From Pseudomonas sp. FP198 (lineage in GTDB: Bacteria > Pseudomonadota > Gammaproteobacteria > Pseudomonadales > Pseudomonadaceae), in NCBI RefSeq assembly GCF_030687895.1, contig NZ_CP117452.1, positions 4,642,501 through 4,706,500 of the forward strand: 64,000 nt of DNA, in the 5' to 3' direction. The position numbers were made by a program, and so were the translations under genes. Below are positions 53,920-55,058 of this stretch, piece after piece. Below the pieces are notes generated by a model that was not told the DNA's origin, made no database searches, and saw only the letters and a list, made by a program, of their open reading frames with translations. How positions within the stretch are numbered: the stretch's first letter is position 1; the number at the start of each line of letters is the position of its first letter.

Positions 53920-55058
53920 ATGACCAGAACCATGCGCACCCGAACGTTGAAAACGCTGTTGGCGCCATCGCTGCTGACCCTGGCGATGTTCGCCGGGGCC
54001 ACGCAGGCGGCGGCTCCACTGCGCCCGCCGCAGGGCTACTTCGCACCGATTGAAAAGGTCAAGGAAGGCTCCGGCGGCCAGGGCTGCGAAGCCGTGCCGA
54101 CGCCTTACACCGGCTCGCTGCAGTTTCGCAGCAAGTACGAGGGCTCCGACAAGGCTCGCGCGACGCTGAACGTGCAGTCGGAAAAAGCCTTCCGCGACAG
54201 CACCGCCGACATCACCAAGATCGAGCGCGGCATCAGCAAGCAGGTCATGCAGTTCATGCGCGACGGTCGGCCCGAGCAACTGGAATGCACCCTGAACTGG
54301 CTGACCGCCTGGGCCAAGGCCGATGCGTTGATGTCCAAGGACTTCAACCACACCGGCAAGTCCATGCGCAAATGGGCGCTGGGCAGCATGGCTTCGGCCT
54401 ATGTGCGCCTGAAGTTCTCCGAGTCGCGCCCGCTGGCGAATCACCAGGAACAGGCGCAACTGATCGAGAGCTGGTTCAGCAAGATGGCCGACCAGGTCGT
54501 CAGCGACTGGGACAACCTGCCGCTGGACAAGACCAACAACCACTCGTACTGGGCCGCCTGGTCAGTGATGGCGACCGCCGTGGCGACCAACCGTCGCGAC
54601 CTGTTCGACTGGGCCGTCAAGGAATACAAGGTCGGCGTCAATCAGGTAGACGCCGAAGGCTTCTTGCCCAACGAGCTCAAGCGCAAGCAACGCGCCCTGT
54701 CCTACCACAACTATGCCCTGCCGCCGCTGGCGATGATCGCCAGTTTCGCCCAGGTCAACGGCGTGGACCTGCGCCAGGAAAACAATGGCGCCCTCAAGCG
54801 ACTGGGCGACCGGGTGCTGGCCGGGGTGAAAGACCCGGACATCTTCGAAGAGAAGAGAACGGCGACGAGCAGGACATGAAGGATCTGAAGATCGATTCGA
54901 AATTCGCCTGGCTCGAACCGTTCTGCAGCCTCTACACCTGCTCCGAGGACGTGCTGGAACGCAAGCATGAAATGCAACCGTTCAAGACCTTCCGCCTCGG
55001 CGGCGACCTGACCCGGGTGTATGACCCTTCGCGGGAGAAAGGCGAAAAAGGAAGCTGA
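53920..55058 (+). pseudogene. algL: Alginate lyase algL, frameshifted near the 3' end
   Basis: AlgL degrades alginate that stays in the periplasm. The first part has a signal peptide (about 1-31), the catalytic NNHSYW (Asn207, His208) and KRKQRALSYHNYAL. The frame then shifts at 54847-54858 (GAAGAGAAGAGA): the original frame stops at 54879, while the remaining C-terminal sequence (DMKDLKIDSKFAWLEPFCS, then RLGGDLTRVYDPSREKG) continues in another frame to 55058. A net +2 (or -1) change explains this. About 66 residues, including two Cys, are lost. GAGG precedes the ATG at 53920 by nine bases. Confidence 0.9.

What the first reader, a model, noticed from the sequence alone, without database searches (positions are those of the whole stretch)
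54847..54858. Frameshift in algL removes the C-terminal end of alginate lyase
The AlgL frame stops at 54879, but a well-conserved AlgL C-terminus (KIDSKFAWLEPFC, then FRLGGDLTRVYD) continues in another frame to 55058. The break is in GAAGAGAAGAGA, a short GAAGA tandem repeat, so slippage is plausible. A net +2 or -1 change explains it. AlgL clears polymer from the periplasm, and published work in P. aeruginosa reports that losing it is harmful when alginate is made. A broken algL therefore suggests the operon is silent, or that the shift is reversible or an error.
Basis: partly seen in the sequence, partly recalled or inferred. Interest (0 to 1): 0.72.

Follow-up and report, generated by a model that had tools for sequence, protein, structure and literature searches.

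The report
Likely assembly error breaks algL
The reading-frame break in the alginate lyase gene is really in this sequence, but similar breaks in other well-kept genes, including the only copy of a folate-making gene, suggest that it is an error in the genome assembly rather than a change in the bacterium.

Summary
The frame break is present as described: algL stops at 54879 and the conserved AlgL C-terminus continues in another frame to 55058. In 78 of 80 named relatives algL reads through in one frame; the other 2 are open to the contig end. The next gene, algI, is also frame-broken, near 55329; 77 of 77 relatives that hold its start are intact.

The telling evidence lies elsewhere in the genome. 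Of 440 genes of a sister genome aligned to this one (486 kb), 7 are frame-broken here, with 9 breaks. One is the only folP, split into two frames. Six of the 9 breaks form three pairs within 600 nt; 1 of 20,000 random placements did so. In the reverse direction (445 comparisons, 16 candidates rechecked) I judged no internal break to lie in the sister genome. Outside the breaks, algL and algI look as constrained as in relatives.

Most likely these are local insertion/deletion errors of the consensus. If real, the loss is very recent, and the genes that normally keep alginate off look intact. Reads would settle it.

The parts
53905..54879 (+). algL, first frame: residues up to about 318 are AlgL, the last few are out of frame, then TGA
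54847..54858 (+). GAAGAGAAGAGA, the place of the frame break in algL
54846..55058 (+). algL C-terminal part in another frame, ending at 55058
   Evidence: NF001468 positions 306-373
55090..55176 (.). REP-type inverted repeat between algL and algI
55208..55239 (.). runs C6, G7 and G7 between algL and algI
55280..55329 (+). algI start (MVFSSNVFLFLFLPIF) in one frame
55330..56846 (+). rest of algI in another frame; break near 55329

Best explanation
The break in algL, like that in algI, is most likely an insertion/deletion error in the consensus of this single-contig assembly, and the bacterium probably carries intact algL and algI. Shown: in the stretches compared, the sequence has 9 frame breaks in 7 otherwise constrained genes; they are clustered; one is in the only folP; the same scan judged none in a sister genome. 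Inferred: the cause is weak local consensus rather than mutation. Not shown: the reads.
For: 7 of 440 aligned genes are frame-broken here, with 9 breaks; the reverse comparison of 310 and 135 genes gave 16 candidates, of which one is algI itself and 15 were judged misplaced starts or antisense frames after a recheck. folP exists only as two abutting pieces in two frames, profile positions 2-95 and 95-257. Three pairs of breaks within 600 nt against 1 of 20,000 random trials. A TldD-like gene is at 100% amino-acid identity with the sister gene on both sides of its second break, over 80 and 391 codons. Window-only changes in algL and algI are 1 replacement and 11 silent, against 2 and 17 in four intact alg genes. 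Relatives intact.
Against: The breaks are not mainly at long single-base runs: 4 of 9 have a run of 4 or more within 10 nt (random 14.6%), and algL and algI have runs of 2 and 3 only, so they are not the classic homopolymer error. The break density is uneven: 2 breaks in the 302 genes, 7 in the 138. Some bacteria lack folP (some Rhizobiaceae; PMC11898565, passage), so a broken folP is not strictly impossible. No reads were seen. Which candidates counted was judged by eye.
Confidence: 0.88

Rival explanations
1. A real and very recent double loss. algL and algI were inactivated by slippage, in nature or in culture. AlgL loses its last 60 or so residues and AlgI its first membrane segment. The cell tolerates it because alginate is not made.
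For: Genes that look like algU, mucA and mucB are intact, so alginate is probably off; wild-type P. fluorescens SBW25 is non-mucoid (PMC5210274, passages). Both breaks lie in the same operon. The algL tract is a short repeat.
Against: It does not explain folP and the other broken genes. The pieces after the breaks carry no excess of replacement changes, so two independent losses would both have to be very recent.
Confidence: 0.08
2. A contingency locus: the GAAGA tract changes length often and switches AlgL on and off.
For: A short tandem repeat at the break.
Confidence: 0.02
3. A split AlgL: the stop overlaps an ATG (ATGA at 54876-54879), ribosomes restart there, and the two pieces act together.
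For: The overlap is in the sequence.
Against: That Met is part of the ordinary AlgL sequence in the 80 relatives, so it was not acquired for this. A restarted piece would have no signal peptide and would not reach the periplasm (inference).
Confidence: 0.01

Closest known systems
Gene-fragmenting indel errors in bacterial long-read assemblies (Kastor paper, PMC12007338; passages seen)
   Same: Single- or two-base frame breaks in otherwise intact, conserved genes, found by comparison with related genomes
   Different: There one older-chemistry assembly had 23.3% pseudogenes; here 7 of 440 compared genes are broken. The platform of this assembly is unknown to me
AlgL, periplasmic mannuronate-specific alginate lyase (PL5), solved as 4ozv, 4ozw and 7sa8
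   Same: Same operon place; both pieces match successive parts of one profile; residues important in P. aeruginosa AlgL are present in the first frame
   Different: As printed, the C-terminal part is in another frame; in a model of an intact relative that part holds helices 328-337 and 342-351 (moderate to low confidence there)
AlgI, membrane protein of alginate O-acetylation (MBOAT family)
   Same: Place in the operon; MBOAT profile match over the cut-off
   Different: As printed, the first residues are in another frame

Membership tests
AlgL (PL5 alginate lyase) | Match to the AlgL profiles along the whole length | tested here: met
   Met only for the two frames taken apart: NF001468 positions 2-308 and 306-373. 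The first frame alone scores 642 bits, under that model's cut-off of 711, but passes NF001467 (511 against 429)
AlgL (PL5 alginate lyase) | Residues equivalent to H202, W205, R249, Y256 and Y259 of P. aeruginosa AlgL | tested here: met
   Read by eye: NNHSYW and KRKQRALSYHNY in the first frame, residues from PMC8829089 passages and the alignment of an intact relative to 4ozv
Consensus indel error | Similar frame breaks in other conserved genes of the same assembly, an indispensable one included | tested here: met
   7 of 440 genes, 9 breaks, folP among them; that folP cannot be lost here is recalled
Consensus indel error | Breaks grouped in patches | tested here: met
   Three pairs within 600 nt; 1 of 20,000 random trials; test chosen after seeing the pairs
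Consensus indel error | Raw reads disagree with the printed sequence | not testable with these tools
   No reads are held
Pseudogene (real decay) | Relaxed constraint after the break | tested here: not met
   1 replacement and 11 silent window-only changes in algL plus algI; a very recent loss would look the same
Contingency locus (phase variation by slippage) | A simple repeat whose length varies so that in-frame and out-of-frame copies are seen | tested here: not met
   12-nt tract; 0 of 80 relatives out of frame. Variation within the strain could not be tested

The most novel reading that the evidence does not exclude
The breaks are real and were made together in patches, for instance by an error-prone repair event, so that this strain carries fresh clustered frameshifts in algL-algI and in other conserved genes and lives with a broken folP.
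Probability: 0.03. Interest if true: 0.6.

Novelty: not a real feature. Interest (0 to 1): 0.1.

Why it matters
It warns against reading biology into single frame breaks of this assembly: about one in 63 of the compared genes appears broken, partly in pairs, so other frameshift findings from this genome need reads before they are believed. If the break were real it would be a natural test of whether AlgL can be lost in a non-mucoid Pseudomonas.

Tried and rejected
Hairpin as the cause. A REP-type inverted repeat (DNA fold -49.1 kcal/mol, z -5.9) and runs C6, G7, G7 lie between the two breaks. The window has 9 such repeat pairs, and the scans gave no accepted break near the other 8 where genes were covered, so I do not claim it.

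Homopolymer error as the sole cause: not supported.

Replacement by other lyases. This genome has 4 PL7-type lyase genes, against 0 to 3 in 15 same-genus relatives. The two whose frames I read show no signal peptide by eye, so I doubt that they replace AlgL. A second MBOAT gene at 746271-746936 was not followed.

False candidates in the scans. Searches gave 13 and 10 candidates in this genome; 7 were accepted (2 and 5) and 16 dropped. Dropped were start codons placed too far upstream (among them a NadA-like and a PdxJ-like gene, names recalled), a frame lying mostly upstream of an aspartase-like gene (name recalled), and antisense frames over genes that are intact on the other strand. One dropped candidate (number 871) is unclear at its 5' end only. 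In the reverse direction 9 and 7 candidates were found, one of them algI itself; after a recheck the rest were judged the same way, some being unclear at the 5' end only. The first break of the TldD-like gene rests on 6 codons.

Truncated AlgL in other strains. None among the 120 proteins listed of 775 found, the shortest listed being 350 aa; clustering at 90% identity could hide one.

Naming the strain. A paper search did not help; the nearest named loci share 93% of the DNA.

Papers. Searches for algL with frameshift (13 listed) and for alginate pseudogenes with algI (15 of 117 listed) showed no title about this strain; there I saw titles and abstract starts only, except PMC5210274 (passages). 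Bakkevig 2005 on P. fluorescens AlgL is not held.

Full report
What was claimed. All of this is in the sequence. The first frame matches the alginate lyase profile NF001468 from position 2 to 308 and the second from 306 to 373.

Where it comes from. The window is 4642501-4706500 of a single contig of 5,859,309 bases. By DNA the algG-algF region is nearest to Pseudomonas brassicacearum subsp. neoaurantiaca CDVBN10 and P. agronomica SAICEU22T, both at 93% (which compared 31 loci). I place it in the P. corrugata subgroup (recalled); no call names its species.

Relatives. In 80 named loci fetched with AlgL, 78 read in one frame to the normal stop and 2 remain open at the contig end; the tail is in all 80. 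These were the best 80 of 429, so badly broken copies could have ranked lower. In a second set, taken by DNA similarity, 23 loci from 20 other genomes give AlgL as one match in one frame, whereas this genome gives two matches in two frames. A genus-wide search found AlgL in 274 of 298 genomes; its list of places was cut, so I draw no rate of broken copies from it.

A second break. algI, the next gene, is also broken: its first residues are in one frame and the rest in another, with the change near 55329. The two breaks are 474 nt apart.

Real decay or error. A gene that has been dead for long gathers replacement changes. I counted codons at which one of 16 sequences differs from all the others. 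In the window the broken genes show 1 replacement and 11 silent changes and four intact alg genes 2 and 17; the other 15 sequences range from 0 to 0.33 in the replacement share of the broken genes, the window has 0.08. So a loss is very recent or not real. The algL tail has no window-only change at all.

A wider scan. I compared genes of G010, a single-contig sister genome (82 to 94% DNA identity along the window), with this genome over the stretches that could be fetched. The pooled scan aligned 302 genes (331,649 nt) and a further stretch 138 genes (154,683 nt). Of 23 candidates I accepted 7 genes with 9 breaks: algL, algI, a permease of the lactate/glycolate type, folP, an aldehyde-dehydrogenase-like gene, a TldD-like gene (2 breaks) and a leucine-dehydrogenase-like gene (2 breaks). 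The last three names are recalled from their sequences; the permease and folP were named by profiles. The other 16 were dropped as misplaced starts or antisense frames. On both sides of the accepted breaks the differences from G010 fall mainly in third codon positions, so both sides code, except in two short 5' pieces (algI and the TldD-like gene) with too few changes for this test. In the reverse direction 310 and 135 genes of this genome were compared with G010; of 16 candidates one is algI itself, and I judged none of the others a real internal break, some being unclear at the 5' end only. The density is uneven: 2 breaks in the 302 genes and 7 in the 138.

folP. A search of the whole genome finds dihydropteroate synthase only as two abutting pieces in two frames, profile positions 2-95 and 95-257, plus a weak match of 21 bits in a 1303-aa frame (I take the latter for a methionine synthase, recalled). 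Passages of PMC11898565 call folate essential for bacterial growth, describe FolP as a step of its synthesis, and also say that some Rhizobiaceae lack folP and presumably import folate. That a Pseudomonas cannot do without it is recalled. I think that this break, at least, is an error.

Clustering. Six of the nine breaks form three pairs, 474, 596 and 244 nt apart. Nine breaks placed at random over the aligned length gave three such pairs in 1 of 20,000 trials. I chose this test after seeing the pairs. Patches of weak consensus would give this picture. Against a simple homopolymer error: 4 of 9 breaks have a run of 4 or more within 10 nt, against 14.6% of random places, and algL and algI have runs of 2 and 3 only.

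If it were real. The first frame keeps the residues important for catalysis or binding in P. aeruginosa (H202, W205, R249, Y256, Y259; PMC8829089, passages; position read by eye). It loses the C-terminal part, which has many invariant residues in an alignment of 24 homologues and holds two helices in a model of an intact relative (mean pLDDT 74.5, lower in parts of the tail). I expect an unstable or inactive product (inference). Loss of AlgL is harmful in PAO1 when alginate is induced, though reports differ between strains (PMC8829089, section 7), and one study finds AlgL dispensable (PMC5099689, abstract). A review says that disrupting algL in mucoid strains often gave inviability or loss of mucoidy through secondary mutations (PMC3815931, passages). 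Here mucB was found by its profile and the open frames beside it look like mucA and algU (recalled), so alginate is probably off and a loss could be borne.

Verdict. The most likely explanation is a local consensus error of the assembly (0.88); a real, recent loss is the main rival (0.08).

Noticed in passing
window 55280-55340: algI is frame-broken too: its first residues and the rest lie in different frames.
   Followed up: yes
L206:12814-13666 (genome about 4959313-4960166), minus strand: The only folP of the genome is split into two frames, between FtsH-like and GlmM-like open frames (names of neighbours recalled).
   Followed up: yes
L207:14288-15981: A lactate/glycolate-type permease gene is frame-broken after about 27 codons.
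   Followed up: partly
genome about 4891893; 4869215 and 4868971; 4803842 and 4803246: Frame breaks in an aldehyde-dehydrogenase-like, a TldD-like and a leucine-dehydrogenase-like gene, the last two with two breaks each (names recalled).
   Followed up: partly
window 55090-55176 and 55208-55239: A strong REP-type inverted repeat and runs C6, G7, G7 lie between algL and algI; the window has 9 repeat pairs of this type.
   Followed up: partly
genome 447383-449014, 3417552-3418202, 3630163-3630810: Four PL7-type alginate lyase genes, two side by side; 15 same-genus relatives have 0 to 3.
   Followed up: partly
genome about 4966501 and 5519301, against G010: These places match G010 in reverse orientation near 0.92 and 0.30 Mb, which points to a large rearrangement or a different start point and strand.
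   Followed up: no
window 54876-54879: The premature stop of algL overlaps an ATG of the other frame (ATGA), an arrangement known from coupled translation; here probably chance.
   Followed up: partly
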